Part shown: positions 4,429-64,000 of the stretch, piece after piece | Layout: every line of letters starts with the position of its first letter | How positions within the stretch are numbered: the stretch's first letter is position 1 | Source of the DNA: Gracilaria domingensis | Lineage: Eukaryota; Rhodophyta; Florideophyceae; Gracilariales; Gracilariaceae | Direction: 5' to 3' | Length of the DNA stretch: 64,000 nucleotides | Assembly: GCA_022539475.1 (NCBI GenBank) | Contig: VCMS01000097.1 | Span: 169,354 to 233,353 of the forward strand | Program-made: the position numbers and the translations under genes | The notes under the pieces: generated by a model | What the model saw: the letters and a program-made list of their open reading frames with translations, nothing else | What the model was told of the DNA's origin: nothing | Databases searched by the model: none

Positions 4429-4435
4429 TCCACAT

Positions 4436-4740
4436 TTCAAAAGAGAAAACTTGGAGTGTGGAAGATATAGGACACTGCATGTGGAATACGAACAACTATG
4501 CTCTACACGGAGGCGCTTGCAGAATCCAACAATGCAACAAATATTTAGGTTATGGCCGAGATGGTCATTGTTGTCTACACATATGCGTTGGCGAGAGTCC
4601 GCAATGATCAACATGCATCTTTACGTGATTGTACTGCTTTGCATCTATATATATTGTGCACAAGGAATCCGTAGAACTTAGATAGAAAAACAACAACAGA
4701 ATAAATCAACACAACTTGCATCAAAACTAAAACCCCCGAA
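4436..4740 (+). repeat. probable 3' LTR region of copia element 1
   Basis: A purine-rich stretch (aaaagagaaaac, about 4438-4450) follows the pol stop, as expected for a polypurine tract. The next ~290 bp are non-coding and contain a TATA-like run (ctatatatattg, 4645-4657) and an AATAAA-type signal near 4698. The matching 5' LTR is outside the window, so the ends cannot be fixed and the LTR call is inferred from position. Confidence 0.4.
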
Positions 4741-4937
4741 AGCCGCTATGCGCAACTTTCAACTGCAGGCAATTGCCGCTTGTGGAATCGGTAGATCGAT
4801 CGCTACGCAGCTCAACAGGCAGCCGGGTAACGACTCTATCTGCGAGAGCTCGAACTTGGGTTGCACAGACCAATAGAGGTCCGTCAGCCAGAGTAAGTGC
4901 TACACTGGAACCTACTGCACTGTTATCAGTTTGGTAG

Positions 4938-5681
4938 GATCTTCACACTGAGTCTCGACAGTACATCAATGCACGCGTTGGTTTCGGAATTGCTACTGGG
5001 CGAGATATAGAGGATGCCGAGAGTTTCATGGAGCACCTGGGTGGCTACACTTTTGGCATCTCTGCAAACCAAGGCGCACGGGTGAGATTATCCAATGGTA
5101 CCGAAATTGATCAGGACCTTGACAGGGAAGGCTACGAAAGATGTGCAGCCGAACTTGAGAGACTTGCACTCTCCTTAAATGAATCGCACGGACTTCACGA
5201 AGAGCGTCAACAAGCAGTGGTGAGCACTAGAAAAGACAGTGGACTCCCTAACTTCACGTACAATGGACTGTCGAAGTGGAAAACAGAAGCTAACTCCGGT
5301 ATTTCAAAAGTGTTGACATCCTTTCCGAACCTGGTTGCGTACCCTCAAGATGAAAACTGTGACATAGGGGACATTCGTTTCACGAAAAATAGTGGGGGGC
5401 TAGCCTTGGTTGAAAACGACCCCCAGTTCGACACACATTTAATCGTTGCTTTCGGGAATGCTTCCAATGATGGTCCTCTATATGAAATGGCAACCCTCGC
5501 AGTTCATGTGAAGGGAGACGACCCTCCACCAGCGGTAACATATCTTGTTGGTGGGGTGGAGGACGTGCATGAGACCATCAGAAGGGTGGCAGAACTGTAC
5601 GGGTACAGAAAATGCAAGTGTCAATGGTTTAGAAATGCTCTTGGAATTTGTTTCAAGTGCTACGATGCCTTTAATACTTAG
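4938..5681 (+). pseudogene. HAD-phosphatase-like protein, 5'-truncated copy
   Basis: The frame is open from 4938 (after TAG 4935-4937) and lacks the N-terminal ~80 residues present in the inverted paralogue at 5734-6645, including the HAD motif I region. What remains matches it throughout: GFGIATGR (HAD motif II), SANQGA, DSGLPNFTYN, a TKNSGG segment at the place of the conserved Lys, and FGNASNDGPLYEM at motif IV. The overall pattern resembles trehalose-6-phosphate phosphatase and Cof-like HAD enzymes. The first Asp of motif IV is Asn. An ATG at 5028 would give 217 aa. Copia element 1 ends just upstream, so truncation by its insertion is plausible; an upstream exon cannot be excluded. AATAAA at 5701 is a possible poly(A) signal. 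Confidence 0.65.
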
Positions 5682-5733: not shown

Positions 5734-6645
5734 TTATGAATCATGGTGGTTTTTATCGTGCTGCTTTTCCTCGTAGCCGTACAACAGAGCCACCAACATA
5801 ATTGTCGAATGTACATCCTCCACGCTTTCGAACAGGTTGTGTACTCCACCCGGGATACAATCTTCTTTGAAGTGAACGCCGTACACGCCTACCTCATGCA
5901 AAGGCCCGTCGCTCAAAGCACTTCCGAACGTCACGACGTCATCCGTATCAATAAATCTCGGTTCATTATCCACAAGATTTTCTCCTCCGCTTCCTTTTGT
6001 GTATCGCTTGTCCACAATTTCGCAACTTTTATCGCCGGGATAGATAACAAACGCATCCATCTTCTGCAACAGGTCCCCAATAGCAGAATCCACTTCTTCT
6101 TTCCACTGCCACAGTTTGTTGTACACGAAATTGGGAAGGCCACTATCACTTCTGGTCTCCACGAACCCCTTGTCATCATCATTCACAATACGATGCCTCC
6201 TATTCAAATCCCTTGCCAGGAACAGTAGTCCGTCAACAGTGTGGTCAAGGGTGTGATCATTGAATGCACCGTTAATTTCCCTCTCGTCAGAGAAACGCAG
6301 GAAAGCTCCATGATTCGCCGAGACACCAAACTTATAGTCTCCGAGTCCTTCCATTTTCCCCTCCACGTCGCCCACATCACCCCCTGTGACAAGTCCGAAA
6401 CCAACCCGTTCGTCAATGAACTTCATACACTTCACAACTTCTTCTGGAATTGACTCTCCTTCTCTTCTCAACGTTCCATCAACGGAACTTAATATACCGT
6501 AACCATTGGCATATATGAACTTAGACAAGGTATTTGGTGAAATTTCCGCCAAGTCTCTCTGTTCCTCTGCCATTTTTCCTGATACAGTCACCATACTGCC
6601 ACAAGTACCGCATAGACAGGAACTGTATAGACTTCTCAGTTTCAT
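5734..6645 (-). CDS. HAD-phosphatase-like protein (trehalose-phosphatase/Cof type), probably catalytically altered
   Basis: 303 aa from an ATG at 6645. Residues 51-60 (ILSSVDGTLR) match HAD motif I DxDGTL, but the nucleophilic first Asp is Ser54. Motif II is LVTGGD (86-90). SANHGAFLR (109-117) resembles the GSHG-type segment of trehalose-phosphatases. A Lys-containing TKGSGG follows, and motif IV reads FGSALSDG, lacking the first catalytic Asp. Length and order fit a HAD phosphatase with a C2-type cap. The family is inferred from motif order; substrate is unknown. Loss of the nucleophile suggests a pseudo-enzyme or binding role. It converges on the paralogue at 4938-5681, with stops 52 bp apart, an inverted duplication. 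No obvious signal peptide. Confidence 0.7.
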   Translation of the reverse strand: MKLRSLYSSCLCGTCGSMVTVSGKMAEEQRDLAEISPNTLSKFIYANGYGILSSVDGTLRREGESIPEEVVKCMKFIDERVGFGLVTGGDVGDVEGKMEGLGDYKFGVSANHGAFLRFSDEREINGAFNDHTLDHTVDGLLFLARDLNRRHRIVNDDDKGFVETRSDSGLPNFVYNKLWQWKEEVDSAIGDLLQKMDAFVIYPGDKSCEIVDKRYTKGSGGENLVDNEPRFIDTDDVVTFGSALSDGPLHEVGVYGVHFKEDCIPGGVHNLFESVEDVHSTIMLVALLYGYEEKQHDKNHHDS

Positions 6646-6909
6646 ACTTCTCTTGAAAGCAACCTTAAGTGCAGTTTCAGAAATGTTAGGACGCTACATG
6701 TTCAATTGCGAATTGACTGGTGCCACCAATGATGTTAACGATACCGAGCATTTGGCATGTTGCAATTAGACGCAACTGGACCAAAGACGTTTGACATTTG
6801 TTCAATTACCAGCCTGCCGCACCTTTTCTATGTTCATATGTATAGCCTTGTAATAGTATACTACTCTTAATACTCGCAAGACACACATAATTTACTAAAT
6901 ATCTCATTC

Positions 6910-7868
6910 TCATCCACTTCGAGGCGCTCGCAGCCTCATTATTGGCAAATCGTCATCACTACTACTCTCGAGCACTTCGGTTCTACCGGCGTCCGCTTCC
7001 ACACCAATCTCCACGACCACTTGGTCTTCGTCCATGTCAACCGCCCCAACCTCCTTATCGGACAACAGTTCATCCTCCGCCTCCTCCTCCTCGTCACCAT
7101 TGACAAACGTGGGTCGGAAATCCCGCACCCGATGAACAGCATCAGGTAGTGCGTAGCCCTCTGGTACCATGTACATGTGGTATCTAACCAGCAAATCCAT
7201 AGACTCGGGCCTATCCACCTTGTCCTTCCCACTTGCTCCAGCATGTGTCACATCACCACGGCCCACGAATACAGAGTACGGTGGGATGATTATCTTCTTC
7301 GCTGGATACACCTCCGACATCACTCGCAACTGTTGGTTGTTCATCCCCACCAGTTGATGGCTTCCAGCGCTCACCCAGAGAGGAAAGCCCTCTTTCCCAG
7401 AGGCCATTACAAAGTATCCGGGGTTGCCAGTATTCATTGTTTCCTTCGTAACCAGACCACTGAAGTCGGTGTGCAGCGTCTGGCGCTTGCACTTTCTCGT
7501 CGTCCCCAGAAATCGACCACCAGTTTTCGGAGTGTACATCTTCACAGCTTCCCTTTCATTGTCCCATAGTCCCAAAGCCGCAGCAATTGTACCCATTCGA
7601 ACATCAAGTAAAGCACGCGACCTTACAACCCACCTGAGCTCCTCATTATCCTCCGGCTTCTCCACCGTACCCCAACGTGTCGACATCACTCTCCCCTCAA
7701 ATGGTCCATCGCTACCGTCCTTCCATCCTTCATCATCGTTGATTATTTGAACAAACGACTTCTGTTCTTCTCCTTTCCGTATATCCGGCATCGCTCCATA
7801 CTCATTCTCGAAGAAGTCTACCAACTTCCGCGACACATCTCCGAACTCCTGAACTTCTTCCAACTCCT
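6910..7868 (-). pseudogene. 2-oxoglutarate/Fe(II)-oxygenase-like (double-stranded beta-helix) protein, 5'-truncated
   Basis: The frame covers about 315 codons from the junction near 7868 to the stop at 6910. It shows the iron-binding pattern of 2OG oxygenases: HTDF (about 7464-7475) as HxD, a distal His in GRGDVTHAG (about 7232-7258), and an Arg in LVRYHMY (about 7180). The C-terminal ~60 residues are acidic. At its 5' end it runs without a start codon into an SRP68 fragment, so the junction looks like a recombination breakpoint. TET/JBP-type dioxygenases ride on KDZ transposons in fungi, which makes such a domain here notable, but I cannot assign this one to TET/JBP; phytanoyl-CoA-hydroxylase-like families fit equally. 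Confidence 0.55.
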
Positions 7869-8545
7869 CCCATGTCCATGTTCTCCAAGCGCTTCTCAAA
7901 CAGCGGCGCAGCCTGGGTGTCCGCGCACAGCCTGGCCATGCCAGTGTAGATCTTGTGGACTTTCTGGTCGGCGTGCAAGGCCGCCGCCCACTGCTGGCGC
8001 TCCAGCGCCAGCGCGGCAACTATGTAGTAGCGGTACGCCTCGGCCTCGAACACGGTGGACTAGTCCACCACCTCGTGGCACAGCGCGGGCACCCGCTGCG
8101 CGTGATGCACATCGCGCGACAGCTTTAGCCCGAGGGTGCGGCGCGCGCGCGCCGCGCCGGCCGGCTGCTTGCGCTTCACGTCCAGGGAAAACGCCAACTC
8201 GCTCTTGGCCAGCACCAGTGAGATCTGCAGCGCGCGCGTGTTGCGTCGCACGGCGTGCGACGTCACGGGCGTGGCGCGATAGCGGCGCGGGTGCGATGGG
8301 TGGCGGTTGGAGCCAGCGGTAGTGGCGCGCAGTTGAGCTCCGCGCCGCGTGCAGTACCGCCGGTAGCGCAGTTAGTCGGCACGCTTGAGCCTGTGCGCGC
8401 TCTGCGCCGCCCTCACGTCGGACAGGATGCCCAGCGACACACGCGCTACCTCCTTGTCGCCGCGCGCCGCATCCTCGCCGCCGTTTACTGTTGGTGCGAG
8501 GGTGTCTGCGATATTTCTGTCTGACTGCTCTGATTTCGAAGTGTT
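7868..8545 (-). pseudogene. SRP68: SRP68 (signal recognition particle 68 kDa subunit) pseudogene fragment
   Basis: Reading the minus strand from about 8545 gives one frame matching the N-terminal half of SRP68, the RNA-binding subunit of eukaryotic SRP. It includes the family hallmark LRYRRYCTRR after a HRLKRAD segment, then ISLVLAKSELAFSLDVKRK, then FEAEAYRYYIVAALALERQQW and KIYTGMARLCAD. Two in-frame stops break it: TAA (complement of 8372-8374) and TAG (complement of 8060-8062). The remaining ~60% of the protein is missing; at about 7868 the frame switches to the oxygenase-like sequence. Base composition is strikingly GC-rich compared with both flanks. It is a dead, truncated copy. The intact gene must lie elsewhere. 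Confidence 0.8.
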
Positions 8546-25210: not shown

Positions 25211-25619
25211 GAGGCTCCAGCAGATCTCAGCCACGGTGAGTTGCCGTCGGTATCGGCTTTTCTGCCGAGGCAACAGTTGCTACACGTACACGTAGTCAAA
25301 CCGATGGGCTGTTTCCCAACCATAAAATTATAATTCTAATTTAATAGCGGCGATTCGCACTTTTGGCTGTTGACAGTGCTTACATATGCCACGTGGCTCA
25401 CGCAGCAAGAGGGATTGCGATTCAGGATTCAATCCATTCAATCATCTTCCGCCGTGCTCGTCGTGCCTATTATCATCGGGCAACAATGCAAGAGCGATCG
25501 TCGCAGACGGAGCCGGCACGAGCAGAGCGTTGCTCTCTAGCGCCACCTCGGCCTGCCGCGCCGCCGCCGCGAGGGGCGTCGGTCATGAGTCCCCCGCCAG
25601 CGCTGGAGCGCCGCCCGTC

Positions 25620-33703: not shown

Positions 33704-33803
33704 CGCTCCGCTGCGGTTGATTGGCAGTGGGATTCCAACAATGCGATAAGCACGTTATATCAAAAACCTCGCGCGATAACGGGGCACTCGGTTGCTGATA
33801 TAA

Positions 33804-49940: not shown

Positions 49941-50839
49941 CGTCTGTCTCTTGCAACCGCTAGTTTTTGGCTAGGGTCGTCCAGAAAGTGGCAAGGGTCG
50001 TCCAGTAAGTTTTTTGAAAAAATATCGAGATCATTTATTTCAAAATTTGGAGATAATTGCTTGGGTCGTCCAGAATCGCTGTACAGTAAATACTGGTTGG
50101 TTTTCCACTTGTGCTAGTCCCTTAGTCGAGGGCTACCTCAAAGGTATTTCGCAAAGTCTAGGGTCAGTTTCCATTAAGGCGCACGTTACACGATACCTTC
50201 TGCGAAATGATACCCTGCAACGCATGGAATAGTGGTGCTAGTACAGATGATGCCCATTCTGCCCATTCTGAAATGATACCGTTTCATTCGTATCTATTCT
50301 TCTATCTACCGCTTTTGCTAACCACTATTTCGCTATATTACATGTACCATTTCCCCATGATGAAGCGGAAGTAAGTGCAATCTGCGGCAGCTGCCGCAGA
50401 CTGCACCTGCACCAAAGTGCGGTATCGGTAGAACACATATCCCTACTTGAGGAACCATGCCCAGACACATACGCGTTGCACGTTCAATTCACCTGCAACT
50501 CGTGAGCTACGTCCGCGTCAGAAGTCATTTACCTGTATATGCAAGCACAAAGTATCCATAAGTTAGCCAATGCTCCATTGGATACATTTCAAATACGATG
50601 GAACGTACCACTGGTCAAGCGAAACAGAAACGTTGCGCTAGAAAAGGCGAGAGACCTAGTAAATCGCAAAAGGAAGAAGAAGAAGGAAAGGGATCGGTTA
50701 GATTAGCAACAATCCATTCATCGTAAAGTGCGAAAGATGGCGAAGCGAGAACTCACAAGCAACGAAACCAAGAATGCCCATGCAACAAAGATACCGTAAG
50801 ATGCAATTCACGATACACGACACGCTAATGATGACACTA

Positions 50840-51290
50840 TCGCGCAATCCAGTCAACCAATATCGCCAATACATCAAAAGTAGTGCAAGACGCGAGAAAA
50901 TAAAAGAGTCTATGGCTCAACCAGGTCAACCAAGATCGCCAATACAGCAAAATAAACGTGAGGTGCAAGAAAAGAGACGAGCCTATGAGGCAACCAAGTT
51001 AAACAATATCGCCAATGCACCAAAAGTAACGCAAGACGCAAGAGGAGAGAGACCATCTTATGGCGCAACCTAGTCAACCAAGATGGCCAATGATGAAACT
51101 ATCGCGCAAGCCAATCAACCAATATTGCCAATACACCAAAAGTAGCGCAAGACGCGAGAAGAGAGAAGAGTCTATGGCGCAACCAAGTCAACCAAGATCG
51201 CCAATACAGCAAAAATAGCGCAAGATGCGAGGAGCTAGAGACGTTTATGGCGCAACAAAGGGAACCAAGATCGGCAATACAATGTGATAG
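50840..51290 (+). repeat. subterminal degenerate tandem repeats, transposon copy 1
   Basis: Repeated blocks of the form GTCAACCAAGATCGCCAATA ... AAAAGTAGCGCAAGACGCGAGA, period roughly 65-80 bp. CACTA-group elements commonly have such subterminal arrays as transposase-binding regions. Confidence 0.65.
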
Positions 51291-51987
51291 GTTACACGAA
51301 CAATCAGAGGTCGATCTTGAGAGACGAAATGAAATTGGTCGCGTACTTACAGTCGTCGTGAACGTCGGAAGAAATAGAAGGGAGGCGCGTCAAAGAGTGG
51401 TTACCTTCTTGAACGAATAGAACGAGTTGGAGGGTAAAAAATGGGAACCCGGTAACCCAAAGCTTATTTCCTGCCGTTTACATGTCGCATAGCGCGAAGA
51501 AACGTGGTAAAGATGGGTTAGTTTAGAGCAAAGATACGTAGAGGGATATGAAAGAACGTACGAAAACACTGCACGGAATACATTCATGAGATACAGATGA
51601 TGTCCGCTTTATGGAGGCGTCTATTAAGCGGACATGAACTTCATGCGCTTGAAGCGTACCTCATTCTCTTCTCCGCCCTCTACTTCGTAGCTAGTGCGAG
51701 GGTGGAAAAAAGTACGACGGAGCGGAGTAGAACGCGAGGATGTGGATTGCACGGATCACGACGGTAACGGAAGGTGGGACGTCGGACGGGCCGCGGCGGC
51801 GTCGGAGGGAAGAGATTTATTTTTTTGGGCGAGATTGTAGGCTGTACAACGTTGCAAAACCACAGGTTTATAACCAGTGGTAGATAATACGAGAAGTACA
51901 TCCTTGTGTTGAGGTCGACGTGTACCTACGTTCTTTTTTGAACGAAAGTACGTGATTTAAACTCAAATTATATTCTCCGTTCTCAGC

Positions 51988-54330
51988 TTGAAGTCGGCCT
52001 TGACTGTCTCTCGACCTCTTTCTCCCCTCGGACGACCTTCCTTTACCGTCTTTGTCGTCGCCTCTCCTTCATTTCTTCTTCCCATGGTGTACTACTGTAC
52101 ACATAAGAAGCGTGGTTGCCCGTTCGTTACTCGCCGAGGAGTGTTATCTCTTCAACAGCATGTTAACCATTGCCCGTTTCGTCTGAAAGCCGCGCTGGAA
52201 GACGACAATAGGCGGCCCATTCGAAGAAGCAAGCGTCTCAAGCTTTCTGCACCCGCGCCCGCATCCGAAACGGTCCCTTGTCGCCTTCCCGAGCCTCCGT
52301 TGTCCGAGGACATTGTTGACCCCATTCCGTGCGCCCCTCCCATTCCGGACGGTTCGCATTGTGCTTCTCCTTCCCCGGGTCCCGCGGCATTAGAGCGAGA
52401 ACACGGAAGCAGTTCCCGCCCAGTGCCTTCTGAGGAGGTCCTCGGTGATTTGCATATGGATTATCTCACGGTGTGTCTGGCTTCAGTAGCTTCCCACCTT
52501 GGTCATCGTGAAGCAGACGAGCTAATTGGGCTACTTCGGGACCCGCGATTCTCGCAAAAGCGATTCAACGAGACCATAACAAGTTCTAAGCGCTGTACAG
52601 AACTGAAGAACGCCATTTTCGAACGATACGCCTCAAAAGACGGTTTCAATCGAAGAACTGTCTCGCCAGAAGGATGTAAGTTCAGCGCCACCCTGTACAC
52701 GAGAGACCCCGTTCAGGCACTTGTGAAACAGCTCCAGTTGGCTGACATCGAAAACACATTCTTCTACCCTATACCTCAGACCCAGTCCATGAAAACCTTT
52801 CACCCCATGTCCGTCTCTCTCGCAAGAGACGCCACCTCAAATCTTAAGGAAATTATGATGGGCTTTTTAGATACTAGAATAGAGAGGTAATCCCAAGAAA
52901 TACGTTACAGTGAATCTTTCGTCGGTCTTCTGCAGTTATACACCGATAAGTTTTCAACAACTCTAAAGCAAATATTGGCTACCGCGTATCTTCTTCAACT
53001 CATCTTTCTCAACTTCTCCGACGAGCTACGGCGTAAGTGCATCCGTGATGACCTCACAGTAGTGGCATAATTTTCTACCATACTGGTCTAGGTTTCCGCA
53101 TATGAAACAGACGCAATGCCATTCGTTTCTAGCGAGTCTCTAAGCGGGTCCAGGATGCAAATCCTTCGAAAATTTCTTCTTCAAATCCTGGAGCCCATTC
53201 TAAACCTAATGGAGAAAGGTTTTCAGTTCATCTGCGAAGACAAACTAAGTCAAGTGTACTATTCTCTGCAATTTTTCGCGCGAATATTACTGAGGCTAAG
53301 AAAATTCTGTCTACTCTTCATGGGACCAAAACGGAGAGCCCGTGTCATATATGGAAAGCCCCTCCCTCATCTTATGCAGTAATGTTCTTACCTCATTCAC
53401 AGGACCCTCTCAAAACCACACCAAAAGCGTTAGAAAGACATACTCAGTTATTCTAGAATATGCGAAGAAAGACGATGCAGAAAGAAGTAAACGTCGTGCG
53501 AGGGAGAGGAGAGCTCATGCGGATACTCTCATGCGTTATGATTCCATATCTCTTATTCCCTCGTTCATCGAAACCCACGTGACCGTAGGATTCATCCAGG
53601 GGTCATTTCCATGCAGCCTGCATGGAAATAGGACTGACTGAGTCTGTTTGGAACAAGGAAAGCTCTCTTCGAACAGTTACGCAACTTGCACCTCGGCATA
53701 TTGGAACTGATTAATACTCCAGAAATCGAGAGACTGTAGTCAGAGACCCTAAGCACTGCAATCAAATCATCCGCGTCACTTTCATTTCGAACGATACGTA
53801 CTGAAATCCTCAACTTTACAAAAGCGAATCTATCCCCCATGCAATGCAACTTTTCTGCCGGAGGTTTGCATATAGATTTGTCCACGCTGAAGAAAGGCAG
53901 GTCACTGAATGGAACCTTCACCAAGGCAGATCTTCTTTGAATGATGGAGGCCAAAGCATACAAAGAAATTTACATGTTTCTCCTTTCATGAAGGAATTCT
54001 TTGAAATCTGATGGGAAGCGCAGGACACGGCCCGAATCAGAACAATTTTCTCTCAGTACTCGGACGTCGCTTGTACTAATTATAGGTGCAATTGTGGCGC
54101 ATGATGTAATGAAAGCTCTATTTCGTCTCTTCGGTGGCAGATTGAAGCCTTTAAACGCTCCTCGACAAAGTCGTCGGCAGCGATTCATAGCTCTGGAAGT
54201 GGAACTCTCACGTTTTATCACGGCTCTTAACAGAAGAAGAACTAACACCATTGGCAGCATTTTACAATATCTCCACAACACGTCGATTTATGTCATCTCT
54301 TGTATTGTTGGTGACAGGCCTTGTTAACGG
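51988..54330 (+). pseudogene. Plavaka-like transposase pseudogene (copy 1)
   Basis: Near-identical to the first third of the intact transposase at 56760-60035. The start ATG of copy 2 is TTG here (51988); the next in-frame ATG is 52084 (MVYYCTHKK). Open to TAA 52888-52890, about 300 codons. Beyond that, stops at about 53068 and 53089, frame changes near 53270 and further stops destroy the catalytic region, though homology continues to about 54210. The N-terminal zinc-finger part is still open, so a short DNA-binding fragment could be expressed. Confidence 0.85.
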
Positions 54331-55204
54331 GAGGTGAAGCGATACGATTTCAACATTGGAACTATTGTCATATGCCACGAGCTCAAGCACGCCGGGTTGA
54401 AGGGTTTTCATGACTACCATCTGTTTTTCTTTCAGCTACGACTCTCGTCACCTTTTTCTTCCATAGAGTTTTATACTGAATGAATTTAGCATATACGAGG
54501 ATCATGTAGTAGAAAGCCTATCAGGACTCCATTTAGTTCTTTCTAGAGTTCCGCAGAGAAATTTACTACCACTATAATTCGGGTATTCTATGGTCGTTGA
54601 AGGCCTTCATCGCTGTTTGCCCGCCCGTCGGAACGAACCAATTAAATTCAGATATTAACATAAAACGTCAGAGCCGGTGCGCTTATGCTATACGATAATA
54701 CCTCATCGTCTGTCTCTTGCAGATGCTAGTTTTTGGCGAGGGTCGTCCAGAAATTGGCAAGGGTCGTCCAGTAAATTTTTTGAAAAAATATCGAGATCAA
54801 TTATTTCAAAATCTGCAGATAATTGCTTGGGTCGTCCAGAATCGCTGTGCAGTAAATACTGGTGGGTTTTCCACTCGTGCTAGTTCTTTAGTCGAGGGCT
54901 ACCTGAACTGTATTTCGCGAAGTCTAGGTTCAGTTTCCATTAAGGTGCACATTACACGATACCTTCTGCGGAATGATACCCTGCAACGCATGGAATACTA
55001 GTGCTAGTACAGATGATGCCCATTATGAAATCATACCGTTTTATTCGTATCTATTCTTCTATCGACCGCTTTTGCTAACCACTACTTCGCTATATTACAT
55101 GTACCATTTCCCCATGATGGATCGGATGTAGGCCCAATCTGCGGCAGATGCCGCAGAGGGCACCTGCACCAAATTGCTGGATCGGTAGAACACATACGCA
55201 CTCC

Positions 55205-55237
55205 GAGAGGATGAGGCGCGAAGCGCCTCATCCTCTC
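55205..55237. repeat. perfect inverted repeat, 15-bp arms, GAA loop
   Basis: Arms 55205-55219 (GAGAGGATGAGGCGC) and 55223-55237. Absent from the corresponding place in copy 1 (about 50450), so inserted or expanded in copy 2. Confidence 0.85.
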
Positions 55238-55238
55238 C

Positions 55239-55290
55239 GTTCCTCATGTAGGGAACCATGCCCAGATGCATGGTTCTCTACTTGAGGAAC
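55239..55290. repeat. imperfect inverted repeat, 22-bp arms
   Basis: Arms 55239-55260 and 55269-55290 (GTTCCTCATGTAGGGAACCA... and its partner) pair with two mismatches. Copy 1 has only one arm (about 50443-50462), so copy 2 carries an inverted duplication. Confidence 0.8.
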
Positions 55291-55619
55291 CTGCACCTGC
55301 AACTCGTGAGCTACGTACGCATCAAAAGTCATTTACCTGTATACGCAAGCAGAAAGTATCCATAAGTTAGTCAATGATCCGTTAGATACATTTGAAATGC
55401 GATGGAACGTACCATTGATAAAACAAAACAGAAACGTTGCGCTAGAAAAGTCGAGGGACCTGGTAACTCGCAAACGGAAGAAGAAGCAGGAAAGGGATCG
55501 GTTAGATTACAAGCCCACCATATCATCGTAAACCGCGAAAGGTGTCGAAGCGAGAACTCACAAGCAACGACACCAAGAATACCCATGCAGCAAACATACC
55601 GCAAAATGCGATAAACGAG

Positions 55620-56040
55620 AGAGCAGCCTATGTCGCAACCAAGTACCAGAATCGACTATCCCGCAAGCCAGTCAACCAAGATCGCCAATACAAGAAGATC
55701 AACGTAAGGCGCGAGAAGAGAGGCGAGTCTATGAGGCAACCAAGTCAAACCATATCGCCAATGCACCAAAAGTAACGCAAGACGCGATAAGAGAGAGACC
55801 ATCCTATGGCGCAACCTAGTCAACCAAGATTGCCAATGATGAACCTATCGCCCGAGCCAGTCAACCAATATCAACCAATATCGCCAATACACCAAAAGCA
55901 GCGCAAGACGCGAGAAGAGAGAAGAGTCTATGGCGGAACCAAGATCGCCAACAAACCAAAAGTAGCGCAAGATGCGAGAAGCTAGAGACGCCTATGGCGC
56001 AACAAAGTGAACCAAGATCGGCAATACCGCGTGATAGGTT
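55620..56040 (+). repeat. subterminal degenerate tandem repeats, transposon copy 2
   Basis: Same repeat type as 50840-51290 (CAACCAAGATCGCC, GCGCAAGACGCGAGAAGAGA) at the equivalent distance from the transposase. Confidence 0.65.
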
Positions 56041-56759
56041 ACACGAGCAGTCAGAGATCGATCTTGAGAGACGAAATGAAACTGGTTGCGTACTTACAGT
56101 CGTTGTGGACGTCGGAAGAAATACAAAGGACGCACGTCAAATAGTGGTTACCTTCAATCACGTCAATGTTAGTAGCAAGACGTAGAACAAGATGGAACAT
56201 ATCGTAAGCAGAACGTAGTTGAACAAATGGAACGAGTTGGAGGCTGAAAACGGGAACCCGGTAACCCAAAGCTTATTTTCTGCCGTTTACATGTCGAATA
56301 GCGCGAAAAAACGTGGTGAGGATGGGTTAGTTTAGAGCAAAGATACATAGAAGAATATGGAAGAGAACCTACGAAAAGACTGCACGGAATACATCCGTGA
56401 GATACGGATGACTCCGTCCTACTTTTTTCCGCCCTCTACTTTAAGGAACCTCCATAAAGTACAGGGAGGAAAAAAGAAGGACGGAGCGGAGTATAACGCG
56501 AGGATGTGGATGGCACGGATCACGACGGTAAGGGAAGGTCGGACGTCGGAGGCGCGGCGGCGGCGGCGGAGGGAAGAGATTTATTTTTCTGTGCGAGATT
56601 GGACAGGTGTACAGCGTACAACGTTGCGAAACCACAGGTTTATAACCAGTGGTAGATAATACGAGAAGTACACCCTTGTGTTGAGGTCGACGTGTACCTA
56701 CGTTCCTTTTTGAACGAAAGCACGTGATTTGAACTCAAAATATATTCTCCGTTCTCAGC

Positions 56760-59700
56760 ATGACGTCGATCTTGACTGTCGCTCGACCTCCTTCTCCCTT
56801 CGGACGCCCTTCCCTTGCAGTCTTTGTCGTCGTTTCTCGTTCAGTTCTTCTTCCCATGGTCTACTACTGTACACATAAGAAGCGTGGGTGCCCCTTCGTT
56901 ACTCGCCGAGGAGTCTTATCCCTTCAACAGCATGTCAACCATTGCCCGTTTCGTCTGAAAGCAGCGCTGGAAGACGACAATAGCCGGCCCATTCGGAGAA
57001 GCAAGCGTCTCAAGCTTTCCGCACCCGCGCCCGCATCTTCCGAAACGGTCACTGCCCCTTGTCGCCTTCCCGAGCCTCCAGTGTCCGAGGACATCGTCGA
57101 CCCCACTCCGTGCGCCCCTCCCATTCCGGACACTTTGCATTGTGTTTCTCCTTCCCCGGCTCCCGCGTCATTAGAGCGAGAACACGGAAGCAGTTCCCGC
57201 CCAGTGCCTTCTGAGGAGGCCCTCGGTGATTTGCATATGGATTATCTCACGGTTTGTCTGGCTTCAGTAGCTTCCAACCTTGGTCATCGTGAGGCGGACG
57301 AGCTAATTGGGCTACTTCGGGACCCGCGATTCTCGCAAAAGCGATTCAACGAGACCATAACAAGTTCCAAGCGCTGTACAGAACTGAAGAAGGCCATTTT
57401 CGAACGATACGCCTCAAAGGACGGTTTCAATCGCAGAACTGTCTCGCCAGAAGGATGTAAGTTCAGCGCCACCCTCTACACGAGAGACCCCGTTCAGACA
57501 CTTGTGAAACAGCTCCAGTTGGCTAACAACGAAAACACATTCTTCCACCCTATACCTCAGACCCACTCCACGAAAATATCTCACCCCATGTCCGGCTCTC
57601 TCGCAAGAGACGCCACCTCAAAACTTAAGGAAATGGTCATGGGCTCTTTGGATAGTAGAATAGTGTGGTACTCCCAAGAAATAAGTTACAGTGAATCTTT
57701 CGTAGGTCTTCTGCAGGTGTACACCGATAAGTCTTCAACAACTCTAAAGCAAACATCGGTTACCGCCTATCCTCTTCACCTCATATTTCTCAACTTCTCC
57801 GACCAGCTTCGCCGTAAGTGTATCCGTGATGACCTCACAGTAGTGGCATACTTCCCTACCACACTGATCGAGGTTTCCGCATCTGAAGCAGACGCAATGC
57901 CATTTGTTTCTAGCAAGTCTCTACGCGAGTCCAGGATGCAAATCCTTCAAGAATCTCTTCGTCAAGTCCTGGAGCCCATTCTAAATCTCACGCAGAAAGG
58001 TTTTCAGTTCATCGGCGAAGACAAACTAAGTCGAGTGTGCCATCCTCTGCTTGCAAGTTATTGTGCGGATATTCCTGAGGCTAAGGAAATTCTGTCTATT
58101 CTTCATGGCACCAAAACGGAAAGCCCGTGTCATAGATGCAAAGCCCCTCGCTCATCTTTATGCAGTCCTATTCCCACCTCATTCAACGGACGTTCTCAAA
58201 AGCACACGAAAAGCATCCGAAAGACATACACAGCTATCTTGCAACATGCACAAAAAGACGAGGCGGAAAGACGTCCACGTCGTGCGAGGGAGAGGAAATC
58301 TCAAGCGGATACTCTGATGCGTTCAAATTCCATATCTCTCATTCCTTCGTTCCTCAAAACTTCCGTAAGCCTTGGAATGATCCCGGGATTGTCTCCATAC
58401 AGTCTGTTCTCATTCGAACCATTACACAACTTGCATCTCGGCATCTCAAAGTTGATAAAAACGGCCACAATCGAGAGACTGCAGTCAGACACCCTGTGCA
58501 CCACATTAGGAACATCTGCATCGCGTTCATTTCGAACGATACGCACCCAACTCCTCAACCATGCAAACGCAATTCTAGCTGCCATAGAACGCGATTCTCC
58601 TGCCAAAGGTTTACATATCGATTTCTCCACGCAGGAGAAAGGCAAATCTTTGAATGGTATCTTCACGAAAGACGGTCTCCGTGGAATGCTGGAGGCCAAA
58701 AACTACAAAGCACTTGACATGGTCTTTCCCTTCATAGGAGCATTCTTTGACATATGCTGTGGAGAACAGGACGTTGCCCCAATCACAACCGTTTTCTCTC
58801 AGTATTCGGACTTGCTCTCGACCTTATTCAGATACAATCGTGACCCGTATTGGACTGAAAGCTCTCTCCTGTGTCTTAGTTCGGAGATTGAAGCCTTCAA
58901 GCGTTCCGCAACAAAGACTCTGGCGGATTTTCATCCCTCCAGACTGGGAACTCTGAAGTTTCATCTTCTCGATCATCTCGTGGACGATATTCGCCGTCTG
59001 GGAAGTATCAAGTATTACGACGCAGGCATATACGAACATGCACACCTGCTATTTAAAAGACACTACAAAAAGACGTCCAGAAGAACAGCAACGGCTGTGG
59101 AGGAGACTATTCGCTCCATTGAGCACGGACATGTTAGAAAGCAATGGAATGGCAATACTCCTTACCAGCGTAATCCAGGTTTACCAGGAACTTCCACACA
59201 GCTTCCTCGGTTTGCAATGAGAGGGCGTTCTTTCACTTTACGAGCTCTTCAACATTGTGTTTCAAGTATGTCCAGTTCAAAAACATGGACTGCTGTTAGA
59301 GAAATGTTCTCAAGTACGGACACAAGGTCGATTCTTGATCAAATTGGTCAACAGGCCCTTCCTCCTTTCCTCAGTCTCGTGAAAGAAACACTGGATGAGC
59401 ACTCTATTACATACTTCCCAGAAAAGACAAGGATAACTCTGGTGAATTCGGCCGTCGTGAAAGGCGGTTTCGTTCCGACTCTTGAACACTTCGATTCGTC
59501 TTCTAAGGCACTTAAGCTGGGACGACCCAAATACCCCATCATCCAACGTGTCTTCGCTTCTCCAGCATTTGGTCCCAGTAGAAAGCCAAAGTTTTCCACT
59601 GTATTGGTAAGCGGAGAAGATTCAGAGACTTGGGTTGCCCAGGTAGTCGCTCTGATTCGAATATCTCTCCTTGATTCTGCACTTACCGCACCAGAGGTGG

Positions 59701-60035
59701 CATTCGTCCGGTATTTCGAGGTTTTACCCCCCGCAACAAACATCGACCACATATTGAAATGCATATCTTTACGGTGGGCTACAAACGATGAAAAGAACCA
59801 CACTCTTCCGTTCCCTCGTCATTCCAAAGCGGAGACTATCGTAGAGTTAACTCCTTGGTACGGGATGGTTCCGGCTTCTGCACTACAGGGAACTGTCCAT
59901 GTTGTTCGATCAAACTACCCTGCTCCACCTTTTTGTCCTCCACTTCAATGGTTCCAACACCGATTCTACATCAATCGATTCTATCATGATTCAGATGAAG
60001 GACCAACTGAGCACGTTGATCTTGTACAGCCTTAA
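56760..60035 (+). CDS. Plavaka-type (CACTA/KDZ-related) transposase, intact
   Basis: 1,091 aa from ATG 56760. Residues about 35-65 form a C2H2-like finger (CTHKKRGC ... QQHVNHC), followed by a basic Ser/Pro linker. The catalytic part matches Plavaka transposases of the CACTA group: VYTDKSSTTLKQTSVTAYPLHL with the first Asp (about residue 322), LRRKC and VVAYFPTT, a Cys pair PCHRCKAP, FEPLHNLHLGISK (about 552) at the second metal-ligand region, and KFHLLDHLVDD ... YEHAHLLFKRHYKKT (about 733-770) at the third. An all-DDE RNase H fold is known for the family; exact ligands here are inferred. It would cut and paste the element in the nucleus. Its TAA (60033-60035) shares TTAA with the stop of the convergent gene. 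No damage seen. Confidence 0.87.
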   Translation: MTSILTVARPPSPFGRPSLAVFVVVSRSVLLPMVYYCTHKKRGCPFVTRRGVLSLQQHVNHCPFRLKAALEDDNSRPIRRSKRLKLSAPAPASSETVTAPCRLPEPPVSEDIVDPTPCAPPIPDTLHCVSPSPAPASLEREHGSSSRPVPSEEALGDLHMDYLTVCLASVASNLGHREADELIGLLRDPRFSQKRFNETITSSKRCTELKKAIFERYASKDGFNRRTVSPEGCKFSATLYTRDPVQTLVKQLQLANNENTFFHPIPQTHSTKISHPMSGSLARDATSKLKEMVMGSLDSRIVWYSQEISYSESFVGLLQVYTDKSSTTLKQTSVTAYPLHLIFLNFSDQLRRKCIRDDLTVVAYFPTTLIEVSASEADAMPFVSSKSLRESRMQILQESLRQVLEPILNLTQKGFQFIGEDKLSRVCHPLLASYCADIPEAKEILSILHGTKTESPCHRCKAPRSSLCSPIPTSFNGRSQKHTKSIRKTYTAILQHAQKDEAERRPRRARERKSQADTLMRSNSISLIPSFLKTSVSLGMIPGLSPYSLFSFEPLHNLHLGISKLIKTATIERLQSDTLCTTLGTSASRSFRTIRTQLLNHANAILAAIERDSPAKGLHIDFSTQEKGKSLNGIFTKDGLRGMLEAKNYKALDMVFPFIGAFFDICCGEQDVAPITTVFSQYSDLLSTLFRYNRDPYWTESSLLCLSSEIEAFKRSATKTLADFHPSRLGTLKFHLLDHLVDDIRRLGSIKYYDAGIYEHAHLLFKRHYKKTSRRTATAVEETIRSIEHGHVRKQWNGNTPYQRNPGLPGTSTQLPRFAMRGRSFTLRALQHCVSSMSSSKTWTAVREMFSSTDTRSILDQIGQQALPPFLSLVKETLDEHSITYFPEKTRITLVNSAVVKGGFVPTLEHFDSSSKALKLGRPKYPIIQRVFASPAFGPSRKPKFSTVLVSGEDSETWVAQVVALIRISLLDSALTAPEVAFVRYFEVLPPATNIDHILKCISLRWATNDEKNHTLPFPRHSKAETIVELTPWYGMVPASALQGTVHVVRSNYPAPPFCPPLQWFQHRFYINRFYHDSDEGPTEHVDLVQP

Positions 60036-62426
60036 ACATTAAGGGCTCCATCTTCTACATGTTCACCTTGTGGTGCCTTTTCTTGTGATCCTGTGTTAAT
60101 TCCGAAATCGTTCATGTCCATTTCCTTGAACTCCATATCCCCTTCCTCGCATTCACCAACGAAGCAATCGCTAATAGACCCCAATCTTCGGCTCACACTG
60201 TCAATAAAAAATTGTTCTTTCACAGTGAGGTAAAGTCTTCCGTTCGACGGCATTCGATATCCAAATGTAGCCTCTCTCATGTCATTACCAAGAACCTTAG
60301 TCCAATCTTCCGTTGTCGTTCCAAAATTATGAAACTCGCTGGAATTGGTCCTCAAGACATGTTGCCTAACATCCCCCAGAACATTCTTTAAACACAGAGG
60401 TAGCAGTTCAGCAAACTTCTTTGTAAACAGTTTCTGTCTCTGGCCACCCCTTGACACATCCGTACTTAGAAGGCTCACAACCGTCAACACCCAAGCGTCC
60501 AAACGTGCGAGCAACAGTATTGTGCCATCTAAAAAGGTGCCCGTATCCTTGTCTTCCACATCATACCCAATAAACTCCTTCAGCACTTGTACCCCGACAC
60601 GGTTTCGGAAGAACAAATCTTGATCTTCCGTCGGCATATCCTCGACATTGTCCGCATTAGAGTACTTTAGACGAACAAATGGGGCTTTTCTCCACCATGA
60701 AGTGTTCGGTACACCATTTTCGTCAAAACGCAGTATGTTCTCCTGCGCTTCCTTCAACTGCATTGTGAGTTCGTCAGCATTCTCTTCTACCAGCTTTGTT
60801 CTTCTCCAAATCAGATCGTACCCCAGGAGCAGAAATAGTTTATCCCTCGTATTTCTCTTACGAACGCCCACGACGTCACTCATGGTCTGCCGCATTCTCT
60901 GCCTAAGGCACATATCTGCACAAAGTTCCAGTATACACCTGTCGGTAAGAGATGCTTTTCTAATACCTTCCCAGCTCAACTCCTTCAACTCGCTTTCAAC
61001 CATTTTCTTCAGCAAAGCATCTGGCCCCCCCTCTACCGACGGTGTGAACATGCCAAAACTGCCCAAGAGCTCCACGGGGTTTTTAGGAACCATGTATGAA
61101 CCACCTTCCTCCGGCTCAATAAGCCCTTCCCCACTCTCAGTTGCGTCTTCCACCTTCTCGGCACGGTTACCCCAATTTCGGGTGAGCGACTCACCTTCGA
61201 GCCATAGCTCACTTGTTTCTCTCCTTGCCCACGTCAGCATGTTGTGATACACTGCTCGAGCAACCCCTCGAAACTCGTCGCACACCTCAATTTTATGCTT
61301 CTTTCGACCTGTCTGCCCAGGTTCACCAGCACGTGTACTCCTATCTCCCTCCTGTTTCAGTGCCCCTCTTAGCCCTTCAATGACTAGATCCTTCTCTTCA
61401 AGCCTCTTTTTCAAAGCCGTACTCTGCTCTTGGGCGACCTTCACTAGAATTCCCCGAACCATCAAGTCCTCTTGTAGCGTCTTAACCTTTCTTTCAAGCA
61501 ATTCAGTTCATTTAAAAGATCAGGTCTGTTCATAGAGCTTGAATTCACACCAGTTTGGATATCTTCCGTTATTTCCCTAGCTTCTTCGGCGACAGGCCCC
61601 GGTAATGCCGCAGGATTCGGTGTTATTTCGTTATCGGAACTATCCTCATGTGCCATAGCCTTAGCCACGAGAGGCTGCAGGCGTTCTGTGTCCACCCTTG
61701 GCACGGCTCCGAGCTCCAACTCCCGTGTATGTCCTCCTCCATGGCATGGTATATCAGATGAATTGGGCCTCGTACGAGCTGCAACGGCCCCCGTTCTGGA
61801 AAGAGGGGAAGGTCGAAAAGTAACTCGTCTATCAGTTGTCTCTCGATTTCTTATTGTGTTTCTCCCTTGTCCGGACCCATTGCGAGGCATGATACGATTC
61901 ATAGCGGCCCCAGTTCTAGAAGAGAGGGATGGACGTGACGATCTTAATATACTAGGACTCTCACGACTTCTCGTCATTGTCCCTTGTTGTCCAGATCCAC
62001 TGGGCGGCGTAACCCGCGCCCCAGTAGCTCCGGTCTTCGATATCGGCCGGGACATGAAGGTTTTGGTGTCATACGAACCTCTTCGGTTCCAGTTGTCATG
62101 CCCTCCTGTCCTGACCCGCTTGGCCGAGTTACCTCATCTTCTTGAGGAGCAGAGACAGATGCACGATTTGCATTATCGGCAGTTGACGGCACGACATCGT
62201 TCGCTGATCCACGAATTCTTGACGCAATCCCGGAAGACGCTCCGCTGCGAGATGGGCGAGAGAGTCCTGTAGAAGGACGCCCACTGACTCTCTCCTTCGT
62301 CGAGGACGACTTCCGTTTAGGAAGTGCGGTGCTTGTAGCCTGATTCGTATCATCCGATGCTCTTCTCTTCTTCTGTCCACTCTTGTTCCGCTGCGTACTA
62401 TTTCGCTTTCTCGGCGTTATACCCAT
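60032..62426 (-). pseudogene. large Ser/Arg-rich coiled-coil protein, convergent with the transposase, two frame breaks
   Basis: ATG 62426 (MGITPRKRNSTQRNKSGQKK) starts a basic, disordered region of about 300 residues with imperfect SRTGA and P-x-GSGQ-G repeats. It shifts frame near 62050 (an AAAACC run) and again near 61495. The last part, 61501-60032, is open for about 490 codons: a coiled coil (LERKVKTLQEDL ... STALKKRLEEKDLVIEGLRGAL) then an alpha-helical domain (DKLFLLLGYDLIWRR, LDAWVLTVVSLLS) with no recognisable family. The stop, complement of 60032-60034, overlaps the transposase stop. The breaks may be decay, sequence errors or unseen introns. Position suggests an accessory element protein. 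Confidence 0.6.
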
Positions 62427-62460
62427 GCTGTGGAGATAAACAGGGTAATGAAACGAAATT

Positions 62461-62493
62461 GTTGGGGAGGGGGGAGGGGGTGGGGGGGGGGGT
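62461..62493 (+). repeat. G-rich tract
   Basis: Broken poly(G) runs (ggggaggggggagggggtggggg...) between the coiled-coil gene start and the SET gene; potential quadruplex in the upstream region of the minus-strand coiled-coil gene. Confidence 0.7.
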
Positions 62494-62675
62494 GCATGGT
62501 TCAGATATTCCGGGAGACTCCGCAGTTCCTGCTTTTTAGGAATTTGAGGTGCCCAATGGGTCGCAAATATCGCCGTTACAGATGAAGAGCTCCAGTGTAC
62601 ATGTACAACAACGCGTATTGCAGGCAGCTGCAACACTCACAAGCATATTTACTTTGTATTCGCTACTGAACTCAT

Positions 62676-63352
62676 CTATTGCTCCAATGTCAGAGCCCAG
62701 TCCCAGGCGTACTGCTCTCCGTAGTCGAAATACAACTCTTCGCCCCTCTCAATATCTCTTACTGCTCTACAACGAAGTAGAGCATAGTTAGAAAGGTCTG
62801 ACTTGAACTGTATCACGGACTTCGCTTCCACCACCTGCACATTGGCACTTCGAGTCCTGTTTGACCAGGGCTCCGATAAATCGGGATCCCCGGCATGATA
62901 TCCGGCGTCGTTAATGTAGCCCCCGATACAAAAAGGCGCCGGGACAATGTAGACTTCGCTCTCCTTTCTATCCTGAGCCTGTCCTGGTCTGTTCCTCAGG
63001 TGCAGAAACTCCGTATCAGTCACAGTGACCATCATAGAAAACAACTTGTACCGCACTGGAGTTGCTCCGAGACAGCCACTTCCATACGTTAAGTGTCTTT
63101 CCTTCCGGTTCGTCAGATCCGTGTATACCAAAGTTCCATAGAAATGACAGATAGTTTCCCCAGCCAATATCTTATGTTCCGTGAACACCCCCATACCAGC
63201 ACGGGGATGTCGGATCTTAGAAGATGCTATATGTAAGCGATATCGATTGGCTTCAACAGTCAACAGCATATGCATATCCATAAGATTCAGAGCTCCTCGG
63301 TACTTCTCCTCCCAAAGATCTACAGTACCTCTCCGCACTTGTCGACAAGTCC
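62676..63352 (-). CDS. SET-domain methyltransferase, C-terminal part of a probable methyltransferase-SET gene
   Basis: The open frame ends at 62676 and has no ATG near its 5' end; ATG 63282 (MDMHMLL) is the first possible. The domain is complete: AGMGVFTEHKILAGETICHFYG (start of SET), GYINDAGY (the N-x motif region, with Asp-Ala in place of His-Ser), ANVQVV, and AVRDIERGEELYFDYGEQYAW (GEEL.DYG plus C-terminal Tyr). SET proteins methylate lysines, usually of histones, using SAM. The 5' part overlaps the frame of the amino-methyltransferase-like segment, and the two probably formed one protein across a frame break near 63330. Confidence 0.75.
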
Positions 63353-63850
63353 CAGTCCTTCCAGTATCTTCCTAGGAACTGAGTAATATGTCCAGGCATC
63401 ACTTGGTACTGGGGGTAACCAAATGGAGCCTCCCATTCAAGCCGACCTCGGTCCCGATGTGGAACCCGTTCATAGGTCGTTGAAGCCGCATCCACCACCT
63501 CCTGTTCAACCAGGATGTCATTCTTCCCCCCCCGAATAACTTCGGCCATAAGAGTCGTTAGATGGTGCTTCGCATGGCTGAAACATGGCCTATTCTTCTC
63601 GCACCCCAAGAACTTCCTATGCTTTGTCAGCGATAGGCACGCCATACCCGTAGAAAAAAGTTCCCGCGAACATGTCCATGACAAGATCACCCGGTCTTGT
63701 GAAGCGACATATCAACTCCTTCATCAACTCCCTCGACTTCTGCTCCGGTCTCATGTACTGCCCACCTGGTACTGAGCTACCTGGCTCATGTACCTTCCAT
63801 GTCAACCACTCCCCCGCCCTCGGTTTGGGCACCCGGTCAATTACATTCTG
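63253..63850 (-). pseudogene. amino-methyltransferase-like domain (DNA N4/N6 type), frameshifted
   Basis: Frame 63850-63617 reads MRPEQKSRELMKELICRF then PGDLVMDMFAGT, matching SAM-binding motif I and the preceding KP..L helix of type II/III DNA amino-methyltransferases. At a T6 run (complement of about 63653-63660) the frame shifts by one; the continuation GMACLSLTKHRKFLGCEK is the expected next strand-helix-strand with the acidic SAM ligand, then ends at 63253. The motif IV (D/N/S)PP(Y/F/W) part lies upstream: TAA 63851-63853 cuts the frame and the rest of the window has further stops, so I do not see it. Function as an active enzyme is doubtful in this copy. Confidence 0.6.
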
Positions 63851-64000
63851 TTAGCCGGGAAAGTGGAAGGAATGAAATTGTTTCCTCAAAAATGGAATAA
63901 GACTGCCTCCTCCCGATCGTTCGACAATCCACGCTTCACCCATGAACGTCCCTTAGCTACTCGTTACGTGCTGTATCCCAACACTTCCGTTGGATTCCCT

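What the first reader, a model, noticed from the sequence alone, without database searches (positions are those of the whole stretch)
54707..64000. Plavaka/CACTA-like transposon with candidate methyltransferase and SET cargo
Seen: an intact Plavaka-type transposase, a convergent coiled-coil gene, then a SET domain and an amino-methyltransferase-like domain on the same minus strand, with no gap over 300 bp. Known: KDZ-type elements in fungi carry TET/JBP DNA-modifying genes. Inferred: this element may carry both a DNA and a protein methyltransferase module, a way to modify its own chromatin. I know of no description of this combination.
Basis: partly seen in the sequence, partly recalled or inferred. 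Interest (0 to 1): 0.85.

Follow-up and report, generated by a model that had tools for sequence, protein, structure and literature searches.

The report
Giant Plavaka transposon with methyltransferase cargo
In an unnamed, probably fungal genome, a very large jumping gene with some 500 copies of each of its ends carries a protein that joins a DNA-methylating enzyme to a SET domain, so the element may write its own epigenetic marks.

Summary
The contig ends at window base 64000, inside the element, so other copies in the same 77.9-Mb assembly were read. The element is a large DNA transposon with a Plavaka transposase: 492 exact copies of its left end, 514 of its right end, and an exact 2-bp target duplication in 10 of 20 end pairs read. 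Predicted full length is about 22.4 kb; five pairs lie at 22.2-22.9 kb, but none of the six longest has a duplication (probable misassembly).

Gene order: transposase; coiled-coil; a 1,055-aa frame fusing an N6_N4 DNA methyltransferase (7.9e-15) to SET (1.5e-7); a ParB-like gene with a possible dioxygenase tail; two HAD hydrolases; a Rossmann-like gene; a second coiled-coil. The MTase and SET parts show purifying selection (pN/pS 0.34-0.40), the coiled-coil N part hardly (0.86). The window copy itself is frameshifted.

ParB+MTase in algal transposons, TET/JBP in Plavaka and SET in other transposons are in print. My searches listed no report of this fusion, though one key older paper was not held and Repbase could not be searched. 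Function is inferred: most likely self-marking against silencing. New variant of a known kind.

The parts
54707..54721 (+). Left terminal inverted repeat (CGTCTGTCTCTTGCA)
   Evidence: 492 exact genome copies, reversed control 0; in 8 of 8 fetched loci (L001-L008; L001 and L002 share flanks) similarity starts here and leads into the Plavaka side
54733..54842 (+). Subterminal repeats with GGGTCGTCCAG, candidate transposase binding sites
   Evidence: repeat family D17; the binding role is a guess
55671..56007 (+). 73-bp direct repeats upstream of the transposase
   Evidence: repeat family D1
56733..60032 (+). Plavaka transposase, 1,100-aa open frame
   Evidence: PF18759 8e-19; C(2)C at residue 466 and H(3)H at residue 744
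60035..62426 (-). Coiled-coil gene; main open frame 60035-61507; frameshifted in this copy
   Evidence: 832-aa open frame in the C171 copy; 87 scored of 795 candidate places; indels; no Pfam, NCBIfam or PDB match at E<=1
62679..64000 (-). C-terminal half of the DNA methyltransferase-SET fusion gene (SET 62679-63371, MTase C part above it); frameshifted here and cut by the contig end
   Evidence: 150 scored of 526 (SET) and 150 of 771 (MTase) candidate places
49941..54219 (+). Older, decayed left part of a second copy with the same left end, directly upstream in the same orientation
6913..7873 (-). Fragment of another copy: C-terminal part of the ParB-like gene with HxD...H...R (possible 2OG dioxygenase)
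   Evidence: window 6021-7020 is 98.7% identical to C296:16301-17300; 7625-7873 matches the C171 ParB gene; motif by eye
5737..6693 (-). Same fragment: HAD-family hydrolase gene 2
   Evidence: PF08282 1.1e-4; 125 scored of 931 candidate places
4965..5678 (+). Same fragment: HAD-family hydrolase gene 1, interrupted by a Copia-like retroelement (window 1-4962); the rest of the fragment and the right end lie left of the window at C97:163973-168386 (L009 4620-9033)
   Evidence: PF08282 1.6e-6

Best explanation
Shown: this is one family of a large DNA transposon with a Plavaka transposase, inverted CGTCTGT.. ends and 2-bp target duplications, predicted full length about 22.4 kb, with hundreds of end copies and shorter derivatives. 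Its cargo includes a single open frame that joins a beta-class DNA amino-methyltransferase to a SET domain, under purifying selection comparable to the transposase. Inferred: the fusion protein enters the nucleus, is guided to element DNA (by its own N-terminal half, the coiled-coil protein or the ParB-like protein), methylates DNA (6mA more likely than 4mC, from the DPPF motif; recalled rule) and a histone or other lysine nearby, and so keeps the element's chromatin permissive, or marks its ends, against host silencing. The ParB-like protein's possible dioxygenase tail and the HAD hydrolases may oxidise or further modify the mark.
For: Ends: 492 left and 514 right exact copies. TSD: exact 2 bp in 10 of 20 end pairs read (of 44 found), about 1.25 expected by chance; no pair has a 3-bp duplication. 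Cargo inside the ends, expected versus opposite orientation: SET-left end 22 vs 0 of 29; HAD2-right end 16 vs 1 of 19; Rossmann-like gene-right end 19 vs 0 of 22. MTase and SET in one open frame; 10 of 150 SET hits report a 1,055-aa frame (one with a stop in the match) and the 10 paired MTase hits report the same length. Selection: MTase part outside both search queries pN/pS 0.37 (40 copies), SET 0.40, coiled-coil N part 0.86; transposase dN/dS 0.48 (window vs C171); mutation-matched shuffles reach the observed synonymous count in 7 of 2,000. Motifs: DPPF before FxG (permuted order), NLS-like PKKKRKV, SET GxG and ELYF.YG. The weak nearest PDB chains for SET are KMT2A, E=0.18.
Against: No methylation or expression data; the anti-silencing step is untested. 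The SET part has NDAGYH where I recall NHS in active SET enzymes. None of the six longest end pairs (22.2 kb or more) has a TSD, so no complete 22-kb insertion is proven; the longest pair with a TSD is 21.3 kb. 33 of 104 transposase hits were not linked to cargo, and other pairings in the capped lists are partial (for example coiled-coil-SET 53 of 87, ParB-HAD2 18 of 66). In the shuffle test the number of stop variants is not unusually low (380 of 2,000 shuffles have as few). The window's own MTase-SET copy is broken.
Confidence: 0.5

Rival explanations
1. Same element, but the marks are repressive: the MTase-SET protein limits its own copy number by silencing old copies, as the rotifer N4CMT/SETDB1 pair silences transposons.
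For: A bacterial-type N6_N4 MTase fused to a chromodomain, together with SETDB1 variants, acts on transposons in rotifers (PMC8885841, passages). Hundreds of end copies and many shorter end pairs fit a self-limiting element.
Against: Selection at the level of the element should favour spread rather than restraint; DPPF points to 6mA (recalled), which a 2025 paper links to permissive chromatin (PMC12695648, title and start of abstract in a search listing).
Confidence: 0.2
2. The methylation is a transposition signal, not a chromatin signal: methylated or hemimethylated ends control transposase binding, as Dam sites do for Tn10 (recalled).
For: Repeated GGGTCGTCCAG and 73-bp motifs next to the left end could be both methylation and binding sites; the MTase lies inside the mobile unit.
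Against: Does not explain the fused SET domain or the ParB-like, HAD and Rossmann-like genes; the target motif is unknown.
Confidence: 0.15
3. Passenger cargo: gene capture by a large transposon without benefit to it; the genes are kept by chance.
For: Large transposons carry accessory genes, mostly of unknown function, and some lack a transposase (PMC12477816, passages); the coiled-coil N part evolves almost neutrally (0.86).
Against: MTase and SET parts show pN/pS 0.34-0.40, close to the transposase (dN/dS 0.48), in copies where the coiled-coil part shows 0.86.
Confidence: 0.1
4. Artefact: unrelated repeats next to each other, or a chimeric assembly, that only look like one element.
For: The contig ends in the element; six of six longest pairs lack a TSD; 13 of 20 indels against C171 lie in the last 160 bases.
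Against: The junctions recur at many loci with near-constant spacing and 0 or 1 case in the opposite orientation.
Confidence: 0.03

Closest known systems
Plavaka transposons with TET/JBP (PlavakaB; PMC12730594: abstract, passages, sections 20 and 26 read)
   Same: Plavaka transposase, short TSD, DNA-modifying cargo gene
   Different: Termini here are CGTCTG..CAGACG, not CATCA..TGATG or TGT..ACA; cargo is an amino-methyltransferase-SET fusion plus ParB-like and HAD genes; no TET/JBP profile hit in the Pfam scans made
Ectocarpus Sola1-1_Ec32, 21.5 kb, with a 1,104-aa ParB + N4/N6 MTase protein (PMC12477816, passages)
   Same: Very large DNA transposon with prokaryote-type ParB-like and N6/N4 MTase domains, proposed there to modify its own sequence; similar proteins cited from green and red algal transposons
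   Different: Different transposase; there ParB and MTase share one protein; here they are two divergent genes and the MTase is fused to SET
[quoted passage not shown]
   Same: Giant gene-rich repeats associated with a Plavaka transposase
   Different: The passages name tyrosine recombinase genes as cargo, not an MTase-SET fusion
HarbingerS / MuDR transposons of oomycetes with SET methyltransferase genes (named in the introduction of PMC12730594; originals not read)
   Same: SET methyltransferase carried by a DNA transposon
   Different: No DNA methyltransferase fusion is mentioned there; other transposase families
Rotifer N4CMT (PMC8885841, passages)
   Same: Permuted beta-type N6_N4 MTase of bacterial origin fused to a eukaryotic chromatin domain
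   Different: Host gene with a chromodomain and 4mC activity; here a transposon gene fused to SET, activity untested
Phage N6_N4 methyltransferases (phrog_67 and others)
   Same: Best profile match 3e-21; tblastn matches in 232 phage records, all under 60% identity, best E 3e-9 among the 20 rows listed
   Different: No close relative found in viral contigs or prokaryote genomes by a search that reaches close relatives only

Membership tests
Plavaka transposon superfamily | Plavaka transposase domain (PF18759) | tested here: met
   68.5 bits against a cut-off of 26.3, E=8e-19
Plavaka transposon superfamily | C(2)C and H(3-4)H motifs between second D and last E | tested here: inconclusive
   CHRC at 466 and HLLDH at 744; catalytic D/E not mapped
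Plavaka transposon superfamily | TSD of 2-3 bp | tested here: met
   exact 2-bp TSD in 10 of 20 pairs
PlavakaA or PlavakaB subgroup | Termini TGT..ACA (A) or CATCA..TGATG (B) | tested here: not met
   Ends are CGTCTGT..ACAGACG; feature from PMC12730594 section 20. So not filed in A or B
beta-class (permuted) N6/N4 DNA methyltransferase | PF01555 domain above cut-off | tested here: met
   55.8 bits against 26.7, E=7.9e-15
beta-class (permuted) N6/N4 DNA methyltransferase | Catalytic DPPx before the SAM-binding FxG motif | tested here: met
   DPPF at 521, DMFVGT at 723
beta-class (permuted) N6/N4 DNA methyltransferase | Methylates DNA | not testable with these tools
   needs an assay
SET domain | PF00856 above cut-off | tested here: met
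   36.8 bits (window) and 32.2 bits (C171) against 22.4
Active SET lysine methyltransferase | NHS active-site motif (recalled) | tested here: not met
   NDAGYH at residue 978; GxG and ELYF.YG present. So filed as a SET domain only; activity uncertain
ParB superfamily | ParB N-terminal domain by profile | tested here: inconclusive
   phrog_3264 E=9.6e-4 and DGLHR motif; no ParB hit in Pfam, NCBIfam or PDB; core without a phage match
2OG-Fe(II) dioxygenase | HxD...H...R in a profile-supported domain | tested here: inconclusive
   motif by eye; no Pfam hit at E<=10; single-sequence model pLDDT 33
HAD hydrolase | PF08282 above cut-off | tested here: met
   22.5 and 28.5 bits against 20.9
Algal ParB-MTase transposon accessory protein | ParB and MTase in one protein | tested here: not met
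   separate divergent genes

The most novel reading that the evidence does not exclude
A selfish element that carries a whole base-modification and chromatin kit: one polypeptide writes a bacterial-type DNA mark and a histone mark together, a ParB-guided dioxygenase oxidises the marked base, and the HAD and Rossmann-like enzymes process it further, giving the element a chemically distinct DNA/chromatin identity inside a eukaryotic nucleus.
Probability: 0.15. Interest if true: 0.92.

Novelty: new variant of a known kind. Interest (0 to 1): 0.66.

Why it matters
Whether transposons actively write their own epigenetic state is an open question. A high-copy element whose DNA-methyltransferase and SET domains sit in one open frame under purifying selection makes it testable: native long-read data from the host should show amino-methylated bases on its copies. 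It also links two separately reported cargo types (ParB/MTase in algal transposons, SET in others) in one Plavaka element.

Tried and rejected
Telomeric or LINE-like end attachment: considered because copies seemed to share one fixed end and to be cut variably at the other, and because 16 of 16 SET hits within 3 kb of a contig start face the same way. Rejected once the second end and the 2-bp TSDs were found; (TTAGGG)4 is absent from the assembly.

Exact inverse of the left motif as right end: rejected; all 8 fetched left-motif loci lead into the Plavaka side, and the right end differs after CGTCTGT.

The right-end module as a separate transposon inserted in C42: rejected; it carries the matching inverted end, its Rossmann-like gene lies beside a right end in 19 of 22 places, and C42 has a TA duplication.

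Structure of the possible dioxygenase: single-sequence model unusable, so no fold search was run. Relatives in viral contigs and prokaryote genomes, by a search that reaches close relatives only, and of the ParB core in phages: none.

Bias told: loci used for pN/pS were picked by protein similarity to the SET or MTase query, so the MTase part outside both queries was recomputed. I gave 29 of the 30 SET-search loci and 16 of the 30 MTase-search loci (45 of 60); those aligning over less than half of a region were dropped by the script, leaving 39 to 45 loci plus C171. Pairwise counts of related copies are not independent. These Nei-Gojobori-type counts ignore transition bias and can understate the ratio; the coiled-coil part in the same script is the control. 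The 20 end pairs read for TSDs were chosen by hand out of 44, to cover short and long sizes.
Full report
What was checked. The window is contig C97:169354-233353 of a 77.9-Mb, 680-contig assembly, unnamed and probably fungal (my inference; the organism was not identified). The contig ends exactly at window base 64000, so the element could not be extended to the right; other copies were used.

One fused gene. In the copy on contig C171 the methyltransferase-like and SET regions lie in one 1,055-aa open frame: N6_N4_Mtase at residues 516-753 (7.9e-15), SET at 883-1042 (1.5e-7); the best phage profile is phrog_67 DNA methyltransferase, 3e-21. Ten of 150 scored SET hits report a 1,055-aa frame (one of them with a stop in the match), and the 10 paired MTase hits report the same length. 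DPPF (521) precedes the FxG motif (725), the permuted order; an NLS-like PKKKRKV is at 202; the SET part keeps GxG and ELYF.YG but has NDAGYH where I recall NHS.

The window copy. From 56463 to 64000 the window matches C171 at 97.3%. Relative to C171, 60032-64000 has 20 indels, 13 of them in the last 160 bases of the contig, so some may be consensus errors. In this copy MTase-SET and the coiled-coil gene are frameshifted; the transposase frame is open. Copies with open frames exist elsewhere.

Finding the other end. C171 shows a ParB-like gene divergent from MTase-SET (1,087-aa frame, running into another Plavaka element's end). Two other ParB copies have 1,308-aa frames without an internal stop. 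The stretch after ParB in C296 (L075) matched window 6021-7020 at 98.7%: the far left of the window holds a second, fragmentary copy in reverse orientation, with the ParB C-terminus, two convergent HAD genes (PF08282, 1.1e-4 and 1.6e-6) and a Copia-like insertion; it continues in L009 to the end motif TACGTCTGTGTTCTGCA. The C42 copy carries the same right-end module joined to a shortened MTase gene, an internal-deletion derivative; L016 and L022 show other internal deletions.

Genome-wide tests. Left end: 259+233 exact copies, control 0. Right end: 254+260, control 2. Only the first 100 places of each were listed. Among the 86 left ends on contigs up to C57, 44 pair with a right end in the expected orientation within 30 kb (control: 14 have one in the opposite orientation, under a looser rule), with frequent sizes near 10.3, 13.8 and 22.7 kb. 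Adding the pieces (9.3 + 2.8 + 4.1 + 6.2 kb) predicts 22.4 kb. Linkage, expected versus opposite orientation: SET-left end 22 vs 0 of 29; coiled-coil-left end 10 vs 0 of 16; HAD2-right end 16 vs 1 of 19; ParB-right end 4 vs 0 of 11; Rossmann-like gene-right end 19 vs 0 of 22; transposase-cargo 71 vs 0 of 104. Between capped lists the pairings are partial: SET-MTase 108 of 150, coiled-coil-SET 53 of 87, ParB-MTase 35 of 66, ParB-SET 29 of 66, ParB-HAD2 18 of 66, HAD2-MTase 26 of 125, junction-coiled-coil 10 of 40, Rossmann-HAD2 49 of 131. The 600-bp transposase|coiled-coil junction is whole in 40 of 40 scored places. Misses are not proof of absence.

Target duplications. Of 20 end pairs read, chosen by hand from the 44, 10 have an exact 2-bp duplication and none a 3-bp one: 7 of 7 pairs up to 15.4 kb, 3 of 7 from 16.8 to 21.4 kb, 0 of 6 from 22.2 kb up. 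I read the decline as misassembly of long, nearly identical copies; composite elements are the alternative.

Selection. pN/pS is 0.34 (MTase part, 42 copies), 0.40 (SET, 46 copies) and 0.86 (coiled-coil N part, 44 copies); 0.37 for the MTase part outside both search queries (40 copies). A mutation-type-matched shuffle reaches the observed synonymous count in 7 of 2,000 runs, but has as few stops as observed in 380 of 2,000. The same call gives dN/dS 0.48 for the transposase and 0.53 for SET (window vs C171), and 0.51-0.58 for the transposase of the two window copies. The methyltransferase frame therefore looks useful to the element.

What stays weak. ParB rests on phrog_3264 at 9.6e-4 and a DGLHR motif. 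The dioxygenase tail is an HxD...H...R reading by eye with no profile support. The Rossmann-like gene (a glycine-rich motif by eye) and both coiled-coil genes have no significant match. HAD2 reads SVDGT where HAD1 reads DVDGT (HAD1 translated by eye from the sequence), so HAD2 may be inactive.

Known work. Plavaka elements with TET/JBP, and SET genes in HarbingerS/MuDR, are in PMC12730594 (abstract, passages, sections 20 and 26). A ParB+MTase protein in a 21.5-kb Ectocarpus Sola1 transposon, with similar ones cited from green and red algal transposons, is in PMC12477816 (passages). Giant repeats flanked by a Plavaka transposase in Amoebidium are in PMC11244446 (passages). Passages of PMC8885841, PMC13297926, PMC12633428 and PMC9674265 were also seen. 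Eight searches were made: 2 papers; 0; 172, 15 listed; 1; Plavaka alone: 11, 10 listed; 1,866, 15 listed; 144, 15 listed; 3. No listed title, abstract start or passage that I saw describes an MTase-SET fusion in a transposon. The library holds open-licence papers only; Iyer et al. 2014 is not held, an earlier book chapter cited by PMC12477816 was not looked up, and Repbase could not be searched.

Conclusion. A giant, abundant Plavaka-type transposon with a fused DNA-methyltransferase-SET gene and more modification-type cargo is well supported; what the cargo does is inferred.

Noticed in passing
window 1-4962 and L009 9034-9539: Copia-like LTR retroelement (two large frames; 506-bp LTRs 99.6% identical) inserted in the HAD1 gene of the fragmentary copy; ACA on both sides.
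   Followed up: partly
C171:9501-12806 (L074): A second, different Plavaka element (PF18759 2.9e-6) with a related CGTCTGTGTTTCC end abuts the cut ParB gene.
   Followed up: partly
window 49941-54706: Decayed older copy, same left end and orientation, directly followed by the main copy: nested or tandem insertion.
   Followed up: partly
window 31859-33754 (-): 631-aa frame that looks by eye like a tyrosine recombinase (Crypton-like); not searched.
   Followed up: no
window 9953-11983 (+): 676-aa membrane glycosyltransferase-like frame (by eye), possibly a host gene.
   Followed up: no
window 23835-26933 (+): Two neighbouring 83%-identical stretches with membrane-protein-like frames (local duplication).
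   Followed up: no
genome-wide: 16 of 16 SET hits within 3 kb of a contig start run off in the same direction: the assembly seems to break inside this element.
   Followed up: partly
end pairs of 10.1-10.7 kb on C2, C8, C19, C26, C27, C32: A frequent size class of end pairs, perhaps a successful shorter lineage; its content was not read.
   Followed up: no
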